DNA of 64,000 bases from Mycetocola reblochoni REB411 (GTDB lineage: Bacteria > Actinomycetota > Actinomycetes > Actinomycetales > Microbacteriaceae): the NCBI RefSeq assembly GCF_900163835.1, contig NZ_FUKR01000056.1, positions 1-64,000 on the forward strand, read 5' to 3'. Shown in pieces: positions 4,488 to 56,227 of this stretch. How positions within the stretch are numbered: position 1 is the first letter of the stretch; the number at the start of each line of letters is the position of its first letter. The translations under genes and the position numbers were made by a program. The notes beneath the pieces were generated by a model. It worked only from the letters and a program-made list of their open reading frames with translations. It made no database searches and was not told the DNA's origin.

Positions 4488-6683
<2,196 letters not shown>

Positions 6684-6696
6684 TTACAGAACGGAG

Positions 6697-6726
6697 TTCT
6701 CATGGACGCGTGCGGGATGCTATTCT
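6697..6726 (+). promoter_or_regulatory. Putative promoter of the tRNA-Thr/tRNA-Met pair
   Basis: -10 TATTCT (6721-6726) with a weak -35 TTCTCA (6697-6702) at 18-bp spacing; the first tRNA begins 27 nt after the -10. Assigned by eye. Confidence 0.45.
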
Positions 6727-6753
6727 CATCTGGTGCCACGATCGCTGGCACGC

Positions 6754-6825
<72 letters not shown>

Positions 6826-6854
6826 CGTTGCACATCCACGTTGGGTGAGTACGC

Positions 6855-6928
6855 GGCAGGGTAGCTCAGTTGGTGAGAGCGCACGACTCATAATCGTGAG
6901 GTCGCGGGTTCAAGCCCCGCTCCTGCTA
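6855..6928 (+). tRNA. tRNA-Met (anticodon CAT, elongator type)
   Basis: Anticodon stem CACGA/TCGTG carries loop CTCATAA (CAT); T arm GCGGGTTCAAGCCCCGC; acceptor GGCAGGG against TCCTGCT with a G-U pair at position 1-72. The three G-C pairs typical of initiator tRNA are absent, so elongator Met is favoured; a tRNA-Ile with lysidine is less likely. It follows tRNA-Thr by 29 nt, probably in one transcript. Confidence 0.93.
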
Positions 6929-6940
6929 CAGATGTCCAGA

Positions 6941-6966
6941 TCAGCCCCGGCCTCGGCCGGGGCTGA
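6941..6966 (+). terminator. Hairpin terminator after the tRNA pair
   Basis: Inverted repeat TCAGCCCCGGCC/GGCCGGGGCTGA with a 2-nt loop, beginning 12 nt after tRNA-Met and followed by a short T-containing stretch. Confidence 0.75.
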
Positions 6967-7045
6967 TCCTGTTTACGGGGGCGCGTCATCGTCCGCTCGG
7001 ACGCGACGGTTCGTCGTGTCCCGGACCGGCCCGCGGGGAAAGGCC

Positions 7046-48725: not shown

Positions 48726-49819
48726 GCCCTGTCGGCGTCGGCATCATCGGCGCGGGGGTCATCAGCGCCACCTACCTGGAGAACCTCACCTCCTTCGCCG
48801 GGGTCGAGGTCCGGCGCATCGCCGACCTGGACGTCGACCGTGCCGCCGAGCGGGCCGCGGAGTTCGGCGTCGCCGCCTCGGGAACGGTCGACGAGCTGCT
48901 CGCCGACGACAGCGTCGACATCGTCGTCAACCTCACCATCCCCGCCGTGCACGCCGAGGTCGCCACCCGTATCGTCGACGCCGGCAAGCACGTGTGGGGC
49001 GAGAAGCCGCTCGCCCTCGACGTCGCCAGCGGCCGTGCGCTGCTCGACCACGCCGGATCGCTCGGGCGCCGGGTCGCCTCGGCACCTGACACGCTCCTCG
49101 GCGCGGGGCTCCAGACGGCTGCGCGCACCATCGCCTCCGGCGCCATCGGAACGCCGCTCGCGGCGACGGCCGTGTTCCAGGTCCCCGGTCCCGACGCGTG
49201 GCACCCGAACCCCGACTTCCTCTTCGCCAGGGGGGCCGGGCCGCTGTTCGACATGGGGCCGTACTACCTCAGCGCGCTCGTGACGAACCTCGGCCCCGTC
49301 GCCGAGGTCACCGCCGCGGGCGGAGCGGCCAGGCGGGAGCGCGTCATCGGCTCCGGCCCGCGCGCGGGCGAGACCTTCCCCGTCGAGGTCCCGACGACGG
49401 TCCAGGCGCTGCTGCGCTTCCGCTCCGGCGCGAGCGCCCAGCTGACGCTGTCCTTCGACACCCATCGCGCCCGCGCGGGTGTGCTCGAGATCATCGGCAG
49501 CGCCGGCACGCTCGTCCTGCCCGACCCCAACGGCTTCGACGGAGCGTCGACCCTGTTCGACGCCGACAACCCCGAGGGCAGGGAGATCCCCGCCGAGGGC
49601 CACACCGCCTCGCGGGGCACGGGTGTCGCCGAGCTTGCCGAGGCGATCGCGGAGGGGCGCCCCGAGCGGGCGTCGGGGGCGCTCGCCCTGCACGTGCTCG
49701 AGGTCATGGAGTCCATCGAGTCGGCGATCGCCTCAGGCGAGACGGTGCACATCGTCAGCACGGTCGAGGTCGCGCCACCGCTGGCCGCCGACTGGGACCC
49801 GGCGCGGGTGCTGGCGTGA
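48722..49819 (+). CDS. Gfo/Idh/MocA family oxidoreductase (first)
   Basis: 365-residue NAD(P)-dependent dehydrogenase. N-terminal Rossmann fold [18 protein letters not shown], then [20 protein letters not shown] and the EKPL signature in [12 protein letters not shown]; the C-terminal domain has the putative catalytic [14 protein letters not shown] (DxGxH/Y-type). It probably oxidises a hydroxyl of a sugar or cyclitol. Overlaps the previous gene by 4 nt and the next by 4 nt. Confidence 0.9.
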
Positions 49820-50931
49820 GCGCGCTCAACGCCGCCTTCGTCGGCGGGGGCTTCATGGGCCGCGTCCACGCGCACGCCGTGCACGCGGCCGGCTCGCCGC
49901 TGCTCGGCGTCCTCACCCGCACGCCGGAGGGGTCGAGGAGGGCGTCGGCCGAGCTCGGCGCCACCGGGCACTACGAGGACCTCGACGCGCTCCTGGACGA
50001 CCCCGAGGTCGACGTCGTGCACGTCCTCACCCCCAACGCGACCCACAGGCGGATCGCCGAGCGGGCGCTGGAGGCGGGAAAGCACGTCGTCTGCGAGAAG
50101 CCGCTGGCGACGTCCGTCGCCGACGCGCTGGCGATCGCCGGGCGCGCGGAGGCGGAGGGGCTGGTCGTGGCGGTTCCACACTTCTACCGCTTCCACCCGA
50201 TGGTGCGCGAGGCGAGGGCTCGGGTGGCCTCCGGCGGCATCGGCCGGCTGCTGACCGTCTCCGCCGGGTACCTGCAGGACTGGCTGCTCGACGCCGGGGC
50301 GGACGACTGGCGCGTCGACGACGCGGCGGGAGGACCGTCGCGGGCCTTCGCCGACATCGGTTCGCACCTGGTCGACCTGGTCGAGTTCATCAGCGGCGAC
50401 CGTGTCGCACGGCTGGTGGCGCGGACCTCGACGGCGCACGCCGACCGGGGGCGGGGCGAGGTGCGCACCGAGGACGCGGCCGCGCTGGTCATCGAGACCG
50501 TCGGCGGCGCCATCGGGACCCTGCTGGTGTCACAGGTCGCCGCGGGGCGCAAGAACGCGCTCACGCTCGAGCTGTCCGGCACCGACGCCGCCGTCGCCTT
50601 CGACCAGGAACGCCCCGACGAGATCTGGTGGGGGACGACGACCGAGAACAGCGTCGTACCCCGGGGCATCGCCGGCCTGAGCGCCGACGCCGCACGACTC
50701 AGCACGGTCCCGGCCGGGCACCCGATGGGCTACCAGGACGCGGCGAACGCCTTCGTCCGCGACAGCTACGCGCTCATGGCCGGCGGCACGCCCGACGGCG
50801 TCCCCACCGCAGCCGACGGGGTGCGCTCCGCGGTCATCATCGATGCCGTGCTGCGCTCGCACGCCGCCGGCACCTGGGTCGAGGCCGGCCCTGCTCCGGC
50901 CGCGACAGAAACGAATGGAGTGAACGCATGA
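49816..50931 (+). CDS. Gfo/Idh/MocA family oxidoreductase (second)
   Basis: 371 residues. [16 protein letters not shown] at the N-terminus, [20 protein letters not shown], the [12 protein letters not shown] signature, [12 protein letters not shown] and the catalytic-domain [14 protein letters not shown] with the Asp and His expected at the active site. It is only distantly similar to the preceding paralogue, so the two probably act on different intermediates or on oxidation and reduction steps. GTG start overlapping the previous TGA. Confidence 0.9.
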
Positions 50932-51944
50932 CCGCAGCATCCACGCACCCCGTCACCCTGTTCACCGGGCAGTGGGCCGACCTCCCGCTCGAGGAGGTCG
51001 CCCGGCTGGCGGCCGAGTGGGGCTACGACGGGCTCGAGCTCGCCGCCTCGGGCGACCACCTCGACCTCAAGCGCGCCGACGAGGACCCGGCCTACCTGCG
51101 CGGCAGGCGCGAGATCCTGGACCGGCACGGCCTGCGGCTGTTCGCCATCTCCAACCACCTCACCGGCCAGGCCGTGTGCGACGACCCGATCGACGCCAGG
51201 CACCGGGCCATCGTCCGGGACTACACCTGGGGCGACGGCGAACCGGAGGGCGTGCGCCGCCGCGCGGCCGAGGACATGAAGCGCGCCGCCAGGGTCGCCC
51301 GTGCACTCGACGTGGACACGGTCGTCGGCTTCACCGGGTCGAGCATCTGGCCGTACGTGGCGATGTTCCCTCCCGTGGGCCAGGACGTCATCGACCGCGG
51401 CTACGAGGACTTCGCGACGCGCTGGAACCCGATCCTCGACGTCTTCGACGGCGAGGGCGTGCGCTTCGCCCACGAGGTCCATCCCTCGGAGATCGCGTAC
51501 GACTACTGGACGAGCGTTCGTGCGCTCGAGGCCGTCGAGCACCGCTCCGCCTTCGGCTTCAACTGGGACCCCAGTCACATGATGTGGCAGAACATCGACC
51601 CGGTCGGCTTCATCTGGGACTTCAAGGACCGGATCTACCACGTCGACTGCAAGGACACGCGCCTGCGCCCGTCGAACGGCAGGGCGGGCGTGCTCGGCTC
51701 CCATCTGGCGTGGGGCGACGTCCGCCGGGGCTGGGACTTCGTCTCGACCGGGCGCGGCGACGTCCCCTGGGAGGACGCCTTCCGAGCGCTCGAGGGCATC
51801 GGCTACGACGGTCCGATCTCGATCGAGTGGGAGGACGCGGGCATGGACCGGCTGCACGGGGCGAAGGAGGCGGTCGGCTTCGTCCGCTCGCTGCTGTGGC
51901 CGCGGCCGACGGCGTCCTTCGACGCGGCGTTCAGCACGCAGTAG
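50928..51944 (+). CDS. Sugar phosphate isomerase/epimerase (second TIM-barrel enzyme)
   Basis: 338 residues, longer than the first isomerase of the operon. Segments: [95 protein letters not shown] and [11 protein letters not shown], which supply the usual Glu, Asp, His and Glu metal ligands. ATG overlaps the previous TGA. Last gene of the operon. Confidence 0.9.
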
Positions 51945-52005
51945 CGCGGCGGGCCTCCGCCGGTCGACCGTCCTCGCGGGCCCCCGAACAGGGGTCCGTG
52001 AGGAT

Positions 52006-52035
52006 TTGTCATATTCCGTGGTTTCTCACTAGGCT
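52006..52035 (+). promoter_or_regulatory. Strong promoter with no gene downstream
   Basis: -35 TTGTCA (52006-52011), 18-bp spacer, -10 TAGGCT (52030-52035), set in the only AT-rich part of the 325-bp gap 51945-52269. The next plus-strand gene is far away; what follows is a foldable RNA and then the 3' end of the minus-strand marR gene. Confidence 0.55.
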
Positions 52036-52041
52036 GATCCC

Positions 52042-52205
52042 GGACGTCGCCGAGCGGGTGCTTCTCGCGGCGCGTCGACCGGCCCGTGCGGATCCCTGGG
52101 GGGGGACCGGGTTCCGCACACACAGTGTGGGTGGCTCAACGTGGGGGCGTTGGGCCACCCGCAACCTCCGTGTCTCCGCGGTCACCGTTTCCCTCGCCCG
52201 GCGAC
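52042..52205 (+). ncRNA. Candidate structured RNA, class unknown
   Basis: Downstream of the orphan promoter, GTCGCCG (52046-52052) can pair with CGGCGAC (52199-52205) to close a 160-nt domain. Inside are GCGGA (52088-52092) with TCCGC (52113-52117), enclosing GGGGGACC, and a 13-bp hairpin 52129-52141 with 52148-52160 (one G-U pair). GCCGAG and GGGGGACC recall the start of ydaO-type (c-di-AMP) riboswitches, but the other conserved blocks do not match well. On the minus strand the hairpin could instead terminate the MFS-marR transcript. Confidence 0.35.
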
Positions 52206-52269
52206 TCCTGCGGTCCGCGTCCGCGCGCGCCGTGCCCGGCGGCTGCTGTGCTCACGCCTGCCCGGATGC

Positions 52270-52782
52270 TCAGATCCGCGTCGCGCTCGCCGCGAGCCGG
52301 GACAGCAGCTCGGTCAGGCGGGTGACGTCGGCGGCGCTCCAGTTGCCCATCTCGGTGCGCAGCCGGGCCGACTCGGCGCTCCTGGCCTCGTCGAGCATGG
52401 CGCGCCCGCGCGCGCTCGCGCTGAAGACGGCACCCCTGCCGTCCGAGGGGTTCGGGTGGCGTTCGATGAGGCCCGCCTCCACCAGTGTCTTCGCCGACCG
52501 GGACACCACGCTGCGGTCCAGGCTGAGCAGCTCCGCGAGGCTGCCCGCGCTGATCGGCTCGAGGCGCGCGATCTGCGTGAACAGGGTGAACGTGCCCCGC
52601 TGCATGTCGGGGGCGATTCGTTCGGCCCTGGCGTGGATGGTGCGCTTGGCCTCCGTCACGATGCCGAGCAGCGCGCTCTCCAGCGCGGTGATCTGCTCGG
52701 GGCTGGGGGCGGAGCTGGGACCGGGGCCGGCACCGTCCGGCAGGGGGGCGGGCCCCCTGCCGGAGGCGCCGGCGGCGGTCAT
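52270..52782 (-). CDS. MarR family transcriptional regulator
   Basis: 170 residues. Central winged helix: LARLEPISAGSLAELLSLDR region with recognition helix DRSVVSRSAKTLVEAGLIER and wing HPNPSDGRGAVFSAS. It should repress the exporter gene with which it overlaps by 4 nt (ATGA) and probably senses a toxic substrate. The first about 28 residues are Pro/Gly-rich. It is cotranscribed behind the MFS gene. Confidence 0.9.
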   Translation of the reverse strand: MTAAGASGRGPAPLPDGAGPGPSSAPSPEQITALESALLGIVTEAKRTIHARAERIAPDMQRGTFTLFTQIARLEPISAGSLAELLSLDRSVVSRSAKTLVEAGLIERHPNPSDGRGAVFSASARGRAMLDEARSAESARLRTEMGNWSAADVTRLTELLSRLAASATRI

Positions 52783-54527
52783 CGCCCGCTCTCCCGCCCC
52801 GGCTCTGCCTCGCCGGCCGGTGCCGCGTGCCGCGCGCCGGGGGCTCGTTCCGCGCCGCCGTCGATCCGGGATGCCCCGTCCTCGGGGGAGAGGTCGTCCG
52901 CGACGACGGCGATCGAGCCGGTCGGGGTGACGCCGGCCGTGGCGATGGCGGCGTCGGCGACCTCGTCCCTCCGGTCCTGCGCCGTCTGGGTGCTGAGTGA
53001 GACGTTGGGCAGGAACACGATGGCGATGAGCGACACCAGTGCGAGCGGCGCGGCGGTGAGGAAGATCGAGGCGATGCCGTCCCCGTATGCCGACTCGATG
53101 ATCTGCCTGACGCCGTCCGGCAGGCTGGACACCGCGGGGATGGTCCCGGAGGCGAGCGAGGCGGCGACCTTCTGGCCCTCCGCGCCGAGGGCGGCGAGGG
53201 CCTGCTGCAGCGCGGCCTGCTGCGCCGTCATCGACGCCGTGACCCGCTCGGCCAGCAGCGCGCCGAGCACCGCGACGCCCGCCGCGCCGCCGAGGCTGCG
53301 GAAGAAGGCGACGGAGGAGCTGGCGACGCCGAGCTGCTGCGGGTGCACGGTGTTCTGCACGACGAGCACCAGGTTCTGCATGACCATTCCGACGCCGGAG
53401 CCGAGGATGAGCATGAACAGTGCCACCTGCACGTAGGAGGTGTCGTAGTGGATGGTCCCCATCAGGGCGAGCCCCGCTGTCAGCAGGACCGCGCCGATCA
53501 CCATGTAGCGCTTCCACGCGCCGTAGCGGGTGATGAGCGCGCCGACGATGGTGGAGGACAGCAGCAGTCCGACGATCATAGGCAGGGTGAGCAGGCCGGA
53601 CTCGGTCGGTGTGGCGCCCCTGGCCAGCTGCATGTACTGGCCGAGGAACACGCTGGTGCCGAACATCGCGACGCCGACGGCGAGGCTGGCGATGACCGAA
53701 AGGGTGAAGGTGCGGTTGCGGAACAGGGTGAGCGGGATGATCGGGTCCGCGGCCCTGAACTCGACGACGATCGCCGCGGTCAGCAGCAGGACGCCGCCGC
53801 CGACCATCCAGAGGGTCGTCGTGCTCGCCCACTCGAACTGGCTGCCGGCCAGGCTCACCCAGATGAGCAGCAGCGAGACCGCGCCGGCGATGAGCGCGGC
53901 GCCGAGGTAGTCGATGCGGGCGCGCGTCGTGGTGCGGTGGGCGAGGTGCAGGGTGCGCTGGAGCAGGATGATCGCGACGACGGCGATCGGCAGGGCAACG
54001 AAGAAGTTCCAGCGCCAGCCGAAGCTGTCGGTGATGAGCCCGCCGGCGAGGGGGCCGCCGATGGTGCCGACGGCCATGACCGCACCGAACAGGCCCATGT
54101 ACCTGCCGCGCTCGCGCGGGCTGATGATGTCGGCCATGATGATCTGGCTGAGCGCGGTGAGCCCTCCGGCGCCGAGTCCCTGCACGGTGCGGAACGCGAT
54201 GAGCGTGGAGGTGTCCTGGCTGAACCCGGCCAGCGCTGAGCCGATGACGAAGATGCCGAGCGCCAGCTGGATGAGCAGCTTGCGGTCGAAGAGGTCGGCG
54301 AGTTTGCCCCAGATCGGGGTCGACACGGTCGTCGCGAGCAGGGTGGAGGTGACCACCCAGGTGAACGCCGTCTGGTTTCCGCCGAGCTCGGAGATGATCT
54401 TCGGCAGCGACGTCGACACGACGGTGCCGGCGAGGATCGAGACGAACATGCCGAGCAGGAGTCCGCTCAGCGACTGAAGTACCTGTTTGTGGGTCATCGC
54501 GGGCGCGGTGGGCGCGATGGATGTCAT
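52779..54527 (-). CDS. MFS multidrug exporter, DHA2 (EmrB/QacA) family, 14 TM
   Basis: 582 residues. Starts with VLQSLSGLLLGMFVSILAGT, contains the motif A loop GKLADLFDRKLLIQ, motif C-like GPLAGGLITDSFGWRWNFFV and 14 hydrophobic segments, ending with a hydrophilic tail of about 70 residues. Drug/proton antiport of hydrophobic or cationic compounds is the family role. ATG at 54527 has AAGGAGAG upstream. Cotranscribed with marR and controlled by a promoter with two TTGA-N6-TCAA operators. Confidence 0.93.
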   Translation of the reverse strand: MTSIAPTAPAMTHKQVLQSLSGLLLGMFVSILAGTVVSTSLPKIISELGGNQTAFTWVVTSTLLATTVSTPIWGKLADLFDRKLLIQLALGIFVIGSALAGFSQDTSTLIAFRTVQGLGAGGLTALSQIIMADIISPRERGRYMGLFGAVMAVGTIGGPLAGGLITDSFGWRWNFFVALPIAVVAIILLQRTLHLAHRTTTRARIDYLGAALIAGAVSLLLIWVSLAGSQFEWASTTTLWMVGGGVLLLTAAIVVEFRAADPIIPLTLFRNRTFTLSVIASLAVGVAMFGTSVFLGQYMQLARGATPTESGLLTLPMIVGLLLSSTIVGALITRYGAWKRYMVIGAVLLTAGLALMGTIHYDTSYVQVALFMLILGSGVGMVMQNLVLVVQNTVHPQQLGVASSSVAFFRSLGGAAGVAVLGALLAERVTASMTAQQAALQQALAALGAEGQKVAASLASGTIPAVSSLPDGVRQIIESAYGDGIASIFLTAAPLALVSLIAIVFLPNVSLSTQTAQDRRDEVADAAIATAGVTPTGSIAVVADDLSPEDGASRIDGGAERAPGARHAAPAGEAEPGRESGR

Positions 54528-54582
54528 GGACTCTCCTTGTGGGGCTGGCTCATCCTGAGCTCGTCGTCGCGCCCGGATCTAG

Positions 54583-54624
54583 TTGATGAATGTCAACCAT
54601 ATGCCGATGATTGACTTTTATCAA
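54583..54624 (-). promoter_or_regulatory. Promoter with paired MarR operators
   Basis: Two palindromes of the form TTGA-N6-TCAA: 54583-54596 and 54611-54624, 28 bp centre to centre. On the minus strand TTGATA (forward 54619-54624, inside one operator) and TATGGT (forward 54596-54601, touching the other) form a -35/-10 pair with 17-bp spacing. Repressor binding would cover the promoter from both sides. Confidence 0.7.
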
Positions 54625-54677
54625 CCACCTCGCTGCTGCGCGTCCCCCGGCCCGCGCAGCCGGGGGAGCGGTCCGGC

Positions 54678-55781
54678 TCAGTGCCAGCTGGACCAGTCGC
54701 GTTTGGGGATCAGGCAGTGCACCCCGACGACCCCGTCGACCACCTGCGACACCTCGAAGTCGCCCGCGGCCGACAGATAGGCCAGCGCGGACTGGGGAGG
54801 CAGCTCGAAGCGCTCCGACAGAAAGCGGATCGCCTCCCGCACCGCCCGGCGCATCGCCTCGTCCAGGCTCGCCGCCATTCCGGTGGGGATCCAGTGCTCC
54901 GTCGTCTCCGCCAGCGGGGTGGTCAGGGCCCCGAACAGCCCCGTGCTCTCGTCGGCGGGGATGACGGTGAGCGTGAGGGTGGCGCGCAGCGACGCCTCCA
55001 AAGCGGTCAGCGCCACCTCGCCGTTGCCCTGCGCGAAGTGAGGGTCGCCCGCGTAGAAGAGTGCGCCATCGGCCCTGATCGGGAGGTACAGCGTGCTACC
55101 GGCGACGAGATGCTTGATGTCGATGTTCCCCCCGTGCGGCCCCGGGGGAACGGAGTGCACCGGGGCGTCGTCCTGGCCTGCGACGCCCATGAGCCCGAGG
55201 AACGGTGCCAGCTGGAACGACGCGGTCCTGCCTGCGCCGACGCTGAACCGGCCCCGCGCTCCGTCCCCAGAGTCCTCCACCCAGCAGAAGTGCGAGACAC
55301 CCCCGCCCGGAAGCAGGTCCGGCGTCCACGGGTGCCTGTCGTCGAGCGGGTACTCGCCGGGGAGCGCGCCGAAGCCGTGCCGGTTGCTGATGAAGCCGTA
55401 CGGCACGCGACGGTCGAGCGCGCGCACGTCGACCCGCAGGACGTCGCCCGGCCGCGCCCCGGTGACCGCGATCGGGCCGGTGACCACGTGCGGGCCGTCC
55501 TCGTCGCCGTTGGGGACCTCGCTCGCGGCGAGCTCCACCGCGTCCTCCAGGACGTCGCGGACGCCGTGTGTCCCGAGGAACGTCCGCGGGTCCCTCCCCT
55601 GATCGGCCAGGATCCCCTCGTGGGAGAGCGTGTCGAGGGTCACGGACTCCCCGGAGCCGATGGTCATGACCGGTGTGCTCGCCGCCGTCGGCAGCCAGCC
55701 CCAGCCGACCTCGTCCGGACGGCACGGCAGGTAGTTGTCCGCCCGGATCGGGCCACGTCCGGGGTCCAGGATCGCGCTCAT
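54678..55781 (-). CDS. Acetamidase/formamidase family protein
   Basis: 367 residues, FmdA/AmdA family, which hydrolyses formamide, acetamide or related small amides to ammonia and acid. Recognisable blocks: VTGPIAVTGARPGDVLRVDV, GGNIDIKHLVAGSTLYLPI, FYAGDPHFAQGNGEVALTAL, and a C-terminal cap with FELPPQSALAYLSAAGDF. Last gene of a four-gene operon (binding protein, fused ABC transporter, RidA, amidase), overlapping RidA by 4 nt. ATG at 55781. Confidence 0.88.
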   Translation of the reverse strand: MSAILDPGRGPIRADNYLPCRPDEVGWGWLPTAASTPVMTIGSGESVTLDTLSHEGILADQGRDPRTFLGTHGVRDVLEDAVELAASEVPNGDEDGPHVVTGPIAVTGARPGDVLRVDVRALDRRVPYGFISNRHGFGALPGEYPLDDRHPWTPDLLPGGGVSHFCWVEDSGDGARGRFSVGAGRTASFQLAPFLGLMGVAGQDDAPVHSVPPGPHGGNIDIKHLVAGSTLYLPIRADGALFYAGDPHFAQGNGEVALTALEASLRATLTLTVIPADESTGLFGALTTPLAETTEHWIPTGMAASLDEAMRRAVREAIRFLSERFELPPQSALAYLSAAGDFEVSQVVDGVVGVHCLIPKRDWSSWH

Positions 55782-56227
55782 CGTTCGCCCCCGTCGACCA
55801 GACCGACGATGAGGTCGATCTCCACCCGTGCGCCGACCGCCAGGCCGCGGACGCCGACGCAGGTCCGTGCCGGCCGCGGCTCGGCGAACCACCGACGATA
55901 GACCGTGTTGACGGCGTCGAAGTCATCGAAGTCCTCCAGGTACACCCGCACCATGAGCGCATCGTCGAGCCCCGCGCCGCAGGGGGCGAGGACGGCGGTG
56001 AGGTTGCGCAGGACCTGCTCCGTCTGCTCGGCGACGCCGCCTGCGACGACCTCGCCCGTGTCGGGCAGCGTGGGCATCTGCCCGGTCACAAACAGCAGGT
56101 CGCCCCAGCGCACCGCGTGGGAGAACGGCCCCACCCGGGCCGGGACGTCGGGGTGTCCCGTCAGGTCGAGCGCGGTCCTCGTCGTAATGCCCGCATCCGG
56201 TGCGGTCGTCGTGGCGTTCGTGGTCAT
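55778..56227 (-). CDS. RidA family protein
   Basis: 149 residues (YjgF/YER057c/UK114). Core: VGPFSHAVRWGDLLFVTGQM, GGVAEQTEQVLRNLTAVLAP, ALMVRVYLEDFDDFDAVN, and ARTCVGVRGLAVGARVEIDL with the conserved Arg that binds carboxylates of imine/enamine substrates. It may deaminate a reactive imine or enamine formed during catabolism of the imported compound. Start ATG at 56227 after GGAACGAGGAC; an in-frame ATG at 56278 would overlap the transporter gene. Confidence 0.9.
   Translation of the reverse strand: MTTNATTTAPDAGITTRTALDLTGHPDVPARVGPFSHAVRWGDLLFVTGQMPTLPDTGEVVAGGVAEQTEQVLRNLTAVLAPCGAGLDDALMVRVYLEDFDDFDAVNTVYRRWFAEPRPARTCVGVRGLAVGARVEIDLIVGLVDGGER

What the first reader, a model, noticed from the sequence alone, without database searches (positions are those of the whole stretch)
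52006..52269. Strong promoter and foldable RNA with no gene behind it
In a 325-bp gap a clear plus-strand promoter (TTGTCA, 18 bp, TAGGCT) is followed by a 160-nt region closed by GTCGCCG/CGGCGAC and containing a 13-bp hairpin and GGGGGACC. The only thing downstream is the antisense of marR. It could be an sRNA, an antisense brake on marR, or a riboswitch stranded when its target gene was replaced by the MFS-marR pair.
Basis: partly seen in the sequence, partly recalled or inferred. Interest (0 to 1): 0.6.

Follow-up and report, generated by a model that had tools for sequence, protein, structure and literature searches.

The report
Orphan promoter between two gene ends
A short stretch between two genes carries what looks like an ordinary transcription stop signal, a promoter-like sequence with no gene behind it and some foldable RNA; it looks more like a leftover of lost neighbouring genes than a known or conserved regulatory RNA, although a small RNA unique to this organism cannot be ruled out.

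Summary
The features are real and the 325-bp gap (51945-52269) is non-coding. The riboswitch and antisense readings have no support. The promoter-like site is rare for a gap between convergent genes (1 seen, 0.1 expected in 36 gaps), though shuffles of the whole 459-kb sample give 1-4 sites as strong; it is probably genuine but unproven. Three hairpins fold behind it (52043-52163), but 25 of 224 control intergenic window-strands fold as well. No Rfam match, no c-di-AMP riboswitch and no homolog was found in family and class samples; no second genome of the genus is held. In two related genera (10 of 10 loci fetched) the same TIM-barrel and marR-MFS genes flank two or three further genes that are absent here. 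So the marR-MFS pair probably replaced nothing: intervening genes were probably lost, leaving an orphan promoter. A short lineage-specific transcript is possible but untested.

The parts
50928..51944 (+). TIM-barrel (xylose isomerase-like, PF01261) gene, last gene of the upstream plus-strand run of genes
   Evidence: Pfam; match at E <= 1e-60 in 198 of 299 family genomes (own included), listed relatives 70-86% identical
51971..52004 (+). 14-bp terminator-like hairpin (two G-U pairs, loop 6), 26 nt after the stop codon
   Evidence: z -4.97 on +, -3.34 on -. One search finds a hairpin of 8 bp or more within 90 nt of the TIM-barrel stop in 9 of 29 relatives, among them 2 of the 4 g2 genomes G107, G170, G221, G266 (in the other two I see imperfect ones by eye)
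52005..52015 (+). T-rich tail (TTTGTCATATT) of the terminator-like hairpin; overlaps the -35
   Evidence: sequence
52006..52011 (+). -35-like hexamer TTGTCA
52030..52035 (+). -10-like hexamer TAGGCT (TANNNT class)
52042..52042 (+). inferred transcription start, about 7 nt after the -10; not measured
   Evidence: inference
52043..52076 (+). hairpin A of the putative transcript (alternative to the long-range GTCGCCG/CGGCGAC pairing seen in the longer fold)
   Evidence: fold of 52042-52170
52086..52119 (+). hairpin B, G-rich loop
   Evidence: on its own z -1.15
52126..52163 (+). hairpin C, 17 bp, three G-U pairs in the plus sense, no U-tract; gene-end type hairpin
   Evidence: (z -4.25 on +, -1.96 on -)
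52270..52782 (-). marR-family regulator gene, convergent neighbour
   Evidence: Pfam
52779..54527 (-). MFS transporter gene just upstream of marR on the same strand
   Evidence: Pfam; match at E <= 1e-150 in 184 of 398 family genomes (own included)

Best explanation
The region is the boundary between two convergent operons, with an orphan promoter in it. Hairpin 51971-52004 and its T-rich tail terminate the upstream TIM-barrel operon (inferred from position, sense and fold). The TTGTCA-18-TAGGCT site is probably a real housekeeping-sigma promoter that once served a same-strand gene in this slot. Two related genera keep two or three extra genes (from among a protein 'X' without Pfam match, a glutaredoxin-like protein and an epimerase) between the TIM-barrel gene and marR-MFS; this genome has none of them there, only 325 bp. 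If the promoter still works, it makes a short untranslated RNA that folds into three hairpins and ends near the 17-bp hairpin C, or reads on into the antisense of marR. Shown: absence of those genes here and their presence in the relatives fetched; sequence motifs. Inferred: promoter activity, that the change was a loss here, the RNA ends.
For: Synteny: TIM-barrel, then two or three of X/grx/epimerase, then marR-MFS in 10 of 10 loci fetched from genera g2 and g72 (loci picked because TIM-barrel and MFS hits lay close); none of the three matches in window 49001-56000. In 4 of 4 g2 loci examined (the fifth has the epimerase first), X begins TANNNT-6 nt-ATG 65-76 nt after the TIM-barrel stop; the window has TAGGCT-6 nt-GGACGT, and 52042-52074 shares 17-19 of 33 positions with X (shuffle means 10-12, p 0.0006-0.047; chosen after seeing it). 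The next gene is on the same strand in 18 of 29 relatives' loci (14, four more being X). Promoter pattern: one hit in 36 convergent gaps against 0.1 expected; 9 of the other 11 hits in 459 kb lie 0-173 nt upstream of a same-strand gene. Strong hairpins mark gene ends here: 19 of 36 convergent, 27 of 145 tandem, 1 of 56 divergent gaps. No homolog of the segment. Non-coding in all frames.
Against: Free local alignment of 52030-52269 with X is no better than shuffles (170-258 of 300 reach the score). 52075-52269 resembles none of ten relatives' intervals except in one of 20 strand comparisons (L131 minus, 0 of 60 shuffles as high), which is not surprising among 20. So loss is inferred from synteny, not from a readable remnant, and gain in the relatives is also possible; the other four fetched loci have 6-9 kb and other genes between. 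The tool's own scan finds neither promoter nor terminator here. Shuffles of the whole sample give 1-4 promoter hits as strong, and shuffles of all intergenic DNA give 0-6, mean 3.1, or 1.5, by two ways of cutting it, against 9 seen. The -35 may only be the terminator's T-tail. Only 9 of 29 relatives have a hairpin of 8 bp or more within 90 nt of the TIM-barrel stop.
Confidence: 0.48

Rival explanations
1. A functional small RNA specific to this lineage: about 125 nt from 52042 to about 52170, own promoter, three stem-loops, the last one terminator-like; acts in trans on other mRNAs.
For: Highest promoter score in 459 kb, by a score whose -10 list included TAGGCT; three-hairpin fold of 52042-52170; hairpin C has its three G-U pairs in the plus sense (z -4.25 on +, -1.96 on -), and wobble sense agrees with the client gene's direction in 12 of 16 other asymmetric hairpins (my count, three mixed ones left out); hairpin C lies 106 nt from the marR stop, whereas 25 of 30 single-client hairpins lie within 80 nt.
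Against: No homolog beyond short chance matches in 59 relatives, 398 family genomes by BLAST or covariance model, or 374 class genomes; covariation cannot be measured, since no second genome of the genus is held; the fold z is reached by 25 of 224 controls, and the minus strand of the exact unit scores the same; hairpin C has no U-tract.
Confidence: 0.22
2. No transcript at all: the hairpins are only terminators of the two convergent operons (51971-52004 for the plus operon, hairpin C for marR on the minus strand), and the promoter match is chance, helped by the terminator's T-tail.
For: Gene-end hairpins are common here; hairpin C also folds on the minus strand (-24.6 kcal/mol); shuffled intergenic DNA gives 1.5-3.1 promoter-pattern hits and 0.3 of this strength, and shuffles of the whole sample 1-4 of this strength; the strict scan finds no promoter; the -35 lies in the T-tail.
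Against: 0.1 hits are expected in all 36 convergent gaps, and 4 of 300 shuffles give a site this strong there; the 36-nt AT-rich block has about the lowest GC in the convergent gaps (2 of 4152 windows as low, itself included); hairpin C is 106 nt from marR and its wobble pairs favour the plus strand.
Confidence: 0.2
3. A cis-antisense brake on marR: transcription from 52042 runs through hairpin C into the marR 3' part and lowers marR expression.
For: Geometry only: the promoter points at the marR 3' end 228 nt away, and the simple scan lists no T-tailed terminator between (the same scan also missed hairpin 51971-52004).
Against: Hairpin C stands in the way; marR-MFS sits beside the TIM-barrel gene without a match to this segment in ten of ten relatives' intervals compared, but for one weak strand match; nothing specific to regulation is seen.
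Confidence: 0.07
4. A stranded riboswitch (for example c-di-AMP type) whose gene was replaced by marR-MFS.
For: G-rich motif and a closed overall fold resemble riboswitches by eye only.
Against: The permissive Rfam scan lists only two microRNA families, a CRISPR repeat and a Ruegeria sRNA at E 0.3-5; RF00379 gives no match in the whole genome at E <= 10, while the control genomes ring; marR-MFS neighbours the TIM-barrel gene in other genera; beside 29 TIM-barrel orthologs the model of this segment finds one match of 16 bits, E 0.25.
Confidence: 0.02

Closest known systems
Intrinsic terminators, including those without U-tract (Gupta and Pal 2021, PMC8355165; abstract, section headings and passages seen)
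   Same: Hairpin 51971-52004 lies 26 nt after the stop codon, GC-rich, with T-rich tail; the abstract puts 98% of correctly identified sites within 80 bases of the stop, and one section heading says poly A/U trails are not necessary
   Different: Hairpins A-C start 98 nt after the TIM-barrel stop and hairpin C is 106 nt from the marR stop, outside that range. In Streptomyces lividans, transcript ends without U-rich motif were no more structured than random positions (PMC6742748, passage), which speaks against U-less hairpin C as a terminator
Housekeeping-sigma promoters of actinobacteria (PMC6742748, PMC4128351; passages seen)
   Same: TAGGCT fits the TANNNT -10; TTGTCA shares 5 of 6 letters with TTGACA; spacer 18
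   Different: No gene follows on that strand for 7 kb by my calls; the -35 consensus TGAC of S. lividans is matched at 3 of 4 letters only
Non-conserved intergenic transcription starts described as noisy transcription in mycobacteria (PMC4128351; passages seen)
   Same: An intergenic promoter-like site not conserved in relatives
   Different: Here no start has been measured
c-di-AMP riboswitch (RF00379) and 6C RNA (RF01066)
   Same: G-rich motif (c-di-AMP riboswitch, recalled); two hairpins with homopolymer loops (6C, recalled)
   Different: No match to RF00379 at E <= 10 or to RF01066 at E <= 1 in this genome

Membership tests
Intrinsic terminator (hairpin 51971-52004) | GC-rich stem-loop shortly after a stop codon | tested here: met
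   14 bp, 10 GC pairs, 26 nt after the stop; z -4.97
Intrinsic terminator (hairpin 51971-52004) | T/U tract after the stem | tested here: inconclusive
   TTTGTCATATT, 7 T of 11 by eye; the tool's scan (5 T in 8) did not list it, perhaps because a G-T pair extends the stem
Intrinsic terminator (hairpin C) | U tract and position close to a stop codon | tested here: not met
   tail ACCTCCGTGTCT; 106 nt from the marR stop
Housekeeping-sigma promoter | TANNNT -10 with TTGACA-like -35 at 16-19 nt, above chance | tested here: inconclusive
   above chance for a convergent gap (1 against 0.1; 4 of 300 shuffles as strong), not above chance for the whole 459-kb sample, and not found by the strict scan
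Housekeeping-sigma promoter | mapped transcription start | not testable with these tools
   no RNA data available
Small regulatory RNA gene | conserved sequence or structure in relatives | tested here: not met
   only 2 or up to 8 candidates per genome were scored; conservation within the genus is untested
Small regulatory RNA gene | structure beyond background | tested here: inconclusive
   z -2.45 on + and -2.67 on -; 25 of 224 controls reach -2.5
c-di-AMP riboswitch RF00379 | covariance-model match | tested here: not met
6C RNA RF01066 | covariance-model match | tested here: not met
   no RF01066 match (window) or 29 (genome, E <= 1; 150 of 2066 candidates scored)

The most novel reading that the evidence does not exclude
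A lost leaderless gene left its promoter behind, and the promoter plus decayed flank became a new, lineage-specific small RNA of about 125 nt with three stem-loops ending in a U-less terminator: a case of small-RNA birth from gene loss.
Probability: 0.12. Interest if true: 0.5.

Novelty: new member of a known kind. Interest (0 to 1): 0.18.

Why it matters
Mostly it does not: it is probably an ordinary operon boundary with an orphan promoter. It shows that a promoter motif plus foldable GC-rich DNA is weak evidence for a riboswitch or sRNA in a genome of about 70% GC, where 25 of 224 intergenic control window-strands fold as well. If the transcript exists, it would be a small, testable example of an RNA arising from a promoter stranded by gene loss.

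Tried and rejected
Rfam at gathering threshold on the window: three tRNAs, none in the gap; at a permissive threshold four matches at E 0.3-5, of which mir-652 and MIR1428 simply mark hairpin C and hairpin 51971-52004. c-di-AMP riboswitch in the own genome: none. Idea that the G-rich loops are a sponge for 6C RNA: dropped, no 6C RNA found. BLAST in plasmids and phages: none. The one genome-contig scan, with MarR, gave three hits of 30-45% identity in an Erythrobacter, a Croceicoccus and a Microvirga, and no close neighbour. Covariance model R1, built from the single window sequence entered twice: itself plus six of 397 other family genomes at E 0.004-0.09, fewer than that cut-off predicts by chance; the best (L106) overlaps called genes and one (L110) is a gene-end hairpin. 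R1 in 459 kb of the own genome: of the four best other matches (26.8-31.1 bits) two overlap genes and two are intergenic; the intergenic ones were not pursued. Small ORF in the gap: all six frames negative. Gap as a readable pseudogene of X: only the 33 nt after the inferred start look alike, and free alignment is not significant. A first fold background run timed out; (25 shuffles each, 30 of 226 at z <= -2.5) counted the gap itself among its controls, so repeats it with 100 shuffles and without it. My first promoter score used a list of -10 words containing TAGGCT, chosen after seeing the site; searches also give the plain TANNNT rule. Literature searches; the two aimed at small RNAs of this family or of Clavibacter gave two unrelated papers and none.

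Full report
Observation. The gap is 51945-52269 (325 bp) between a TIM-barrel gene (PF01261) and marR, which face each other. TTGTCA (52006-52011), 18 nt, TAGGCT (52030-52035), the GTCGCCG/CGGCGAC pair spanning 160 nt and the GGGGGACC motif are all present. The hairpin called 13 bp is 17 bp long with three G-U pairs (52126-52163). A codon model trained on this window scores all six frames of the gap clearly negative, so it is non-coding.

A 14-bp hairpin (51971-52004) starts 26 nt after the TIM-barrel stop codon and is followed by TTTGTCATATT. It folds at -35.7 kcal/mol against a shuffle mean of -20.5 (z -4.97; minus strand -3.34). This is the expected form and place of the operon's terminator, although the tool's simple scan lists neither a terminator nor a promoter in 51500-52800. 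The TTGTCA lies inside the T-rich tail, so the two features are not independent.

Are the hairpins special? I took 20 stretches of the same genome, giving with the window 459 kb, and called 401 genes with a home-made codon-bias method. Five of 60 convergent gaps are 325 bp or longer, this one included. Strong hairpins lie in 19 of 36 convergent gaps and 27 of 145 tandem gaps but in 1 of 56 divergent gaps of 30-1500 bp: they mark gene ends. In tandem gaps 25 of 30 such hairpins lie within 80 nt of the stop and 4 lie 106 nt or more away. Hairpin C is 106 nt from the marR stop. Counting, G-T rather than A-C mismatches agree with the client gene's direction in 12 of 16 asymmetric hairpins other than the two in this gap (three mixed ones left out); hairpin C's wobble pairs are in the plus sense, against marR. 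The fold of 52042-52170 as three hairpins looks neat, and a longer plus-strand piece folds better (z -2.50) than the minus strand (-0.76). But for the exact unit z is -2.45 on plus and -2.67 on minus with 400 shuffles (-2.63 and -2.60 with 150), and 25 of 224 control window-strands from other intergenic regions reach -2.5. Structure is therefore weak evidence for a functional RNA.

Is the promoter special? With the plain rule (at least 5 of 6 to TTGACA, 16-19 nt, TANNNT) there are 12 hits in 459 kb; apart from this one, 9 of 11 lie 0-173 nt upstream of a same-strand gene, one is inside a gene with no start near, and one is at a contig end. In the 36 convergent gaps there is one hit, this one, against 0.1 expected; with the finer score (its list of -10 words includes TAGGCT, chosen after seeing the site) 4 of 300 shuffles give a hit as strong. 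In intergenic DNA 9 hits are seen against shuffle means of 1.5 (200 pieces) or 3.1 (207 pieces). The pattern TTGTCA, 16-19 nt, TANNCT occurs twice in the genome, and its backward control not at all. On the other side, over the whole 459 kb shuffles give 1-4 hits as strong as this one, so it is unusual for its place, not for the genome. The 36-nt AT-rich block around it has about the lowest GC in the convergent gaps (2 of 4152 windows). TANNNT as the main -10 in Streptomyces lividans and mycobacteria was read in passages of PMC6742748 and PMC4128351. I judge the promoter probably real; no RNA data are available here to show it.

Is it a known RNA or conserved? Rfam gives only three tRNAs in the window, and chance hits in the gap at the permissive threshold. 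The c-di-AMP riboswitch and 6C RNA models find nothing in the genome. BLAST finds only partial matches of 20-71 nt in 59 genomes (29 besides the own have one at E <= 0.01, best 7.4e-6), two of 36-41 nt in 398 family genomes apart from itself, none at E <= 1e-6 in 374 class genomes apart from itself, and none in plasmids or phages. In some searches only two candidates per genome were scored, so weak homologs could be missed. A covariance model of the three hairpins finds itself plus six matches at E 0.004-0.09 in 398 genomes, no more than chance gives, and beside 29 TIM-barrel orthologs one match of 16 bits. The genus search held a single genome, the own one, so conservation within the genus could not be tested.

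What happened at the locus. TIM-barrel matches and MFS matches lie close together in several genera. I fetched 14 such loci, chosen because both hits were near each other. In all five from genus g2 the order is TIM-barrel, X (same strand; preceded by an epimerase in one), glutaredoxin-like, marR, MFS; in all five from g72 it is TIM-barrel, glutaredoxin-like, epimerase, marR, MFS; in the other four 6-9 kb with other genes intervene before marR-MFS. The marR-MFS pair is thus a convergent neighbour of the TIM-barrel gene in four genera besides this one and most likely did not replace anything; rather, genes that stand in between in g2 and g72 are absent from the window. X starts with TANNNT, 6 nt, ATG, 65-76 nt after the TIM-barrel stop in 4 of 4 g2 loci examined. 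At the same spacing the window has TAGGCT, 6 nt, GGACGT; 52042-52074 matches X at 17-19 of 33 positions (shuffle means 10-12; p 0.0006-0.047), a comparison chosen after seeing it. Free alignment of the rest is not significant, but for one of 20 strand comparisons. A diverged relative of X sits elsewhere in the genome (C43:40290-40748, 34% identity). The next gene is on the TIM-barrel strand in 18 of 29 relatives' loci, on the other strand in 10, and not called in one (with four loci set to X), so a plus-strand promoter in this slot would be normal in the family.

Conclusion. The best reading is an operon boundary: terminator, then a promoter stranded by loss of its gene, then short GC-rich DNA with a gene-end type hairpin. 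Shown: positions, non-coding nature, lack of detected homologs, synteny in the loci fetched. Inferred: promoter activity, the direction of change (loss here rather than gain elsewhere), the RNA ends. A lineage-specific sRNA and a chance promoter are the main rivals. PMC8355165 (abstract, headings and passages) supports hairpin termination close to stop codons; PMC6742748 (passages) found ends without U-rich motif no more structured than random positions, which speaks against hairpin C as a terminator; PMC4128351 (passages) describes non-conserved intergenic transcription starts. Other papers were seen only as search listings.

Noticed in passing
52736-52764: A perfect 12-bp hairpin lies inside the called N-terminus of marR, just after the MFS stop (minus strand); the true marR start may be further downstream, since 8 of the 10 best other MarR matches begin at residue 14 or later (for the hairpin).
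   Followed up: no
window and 395 kb of the same genome: Strong hairpins, many without U-tract, sit at gene ends (19 of 36 convergent, 27 of 145 tandem, 1 of 56 divergent gaps), and their G-U pairs tend to fit the direction of transcription, 12 of 16.
   Followed up: partly
L129-L138, between the TIM-barrel gene and marR: A shared neighbourhood of TIM-barrel, protein X (no Pfam match), glutaredoxin-like, epimerase and marR-MFS genes in two genera.
   Followed up: partly
G000:C43:160849-161267 and C43:222007-222420: Two other convergent gaps of 419 and 414 bp without a called gene or a tRNA; Rfam lists nothing in them at gathering threshold.
   Followed up: no
6609-7045: Convergent gap of 437 bp holding two tRNA genes and a perfect 13-bp hairpin after them.
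   Followed up: no
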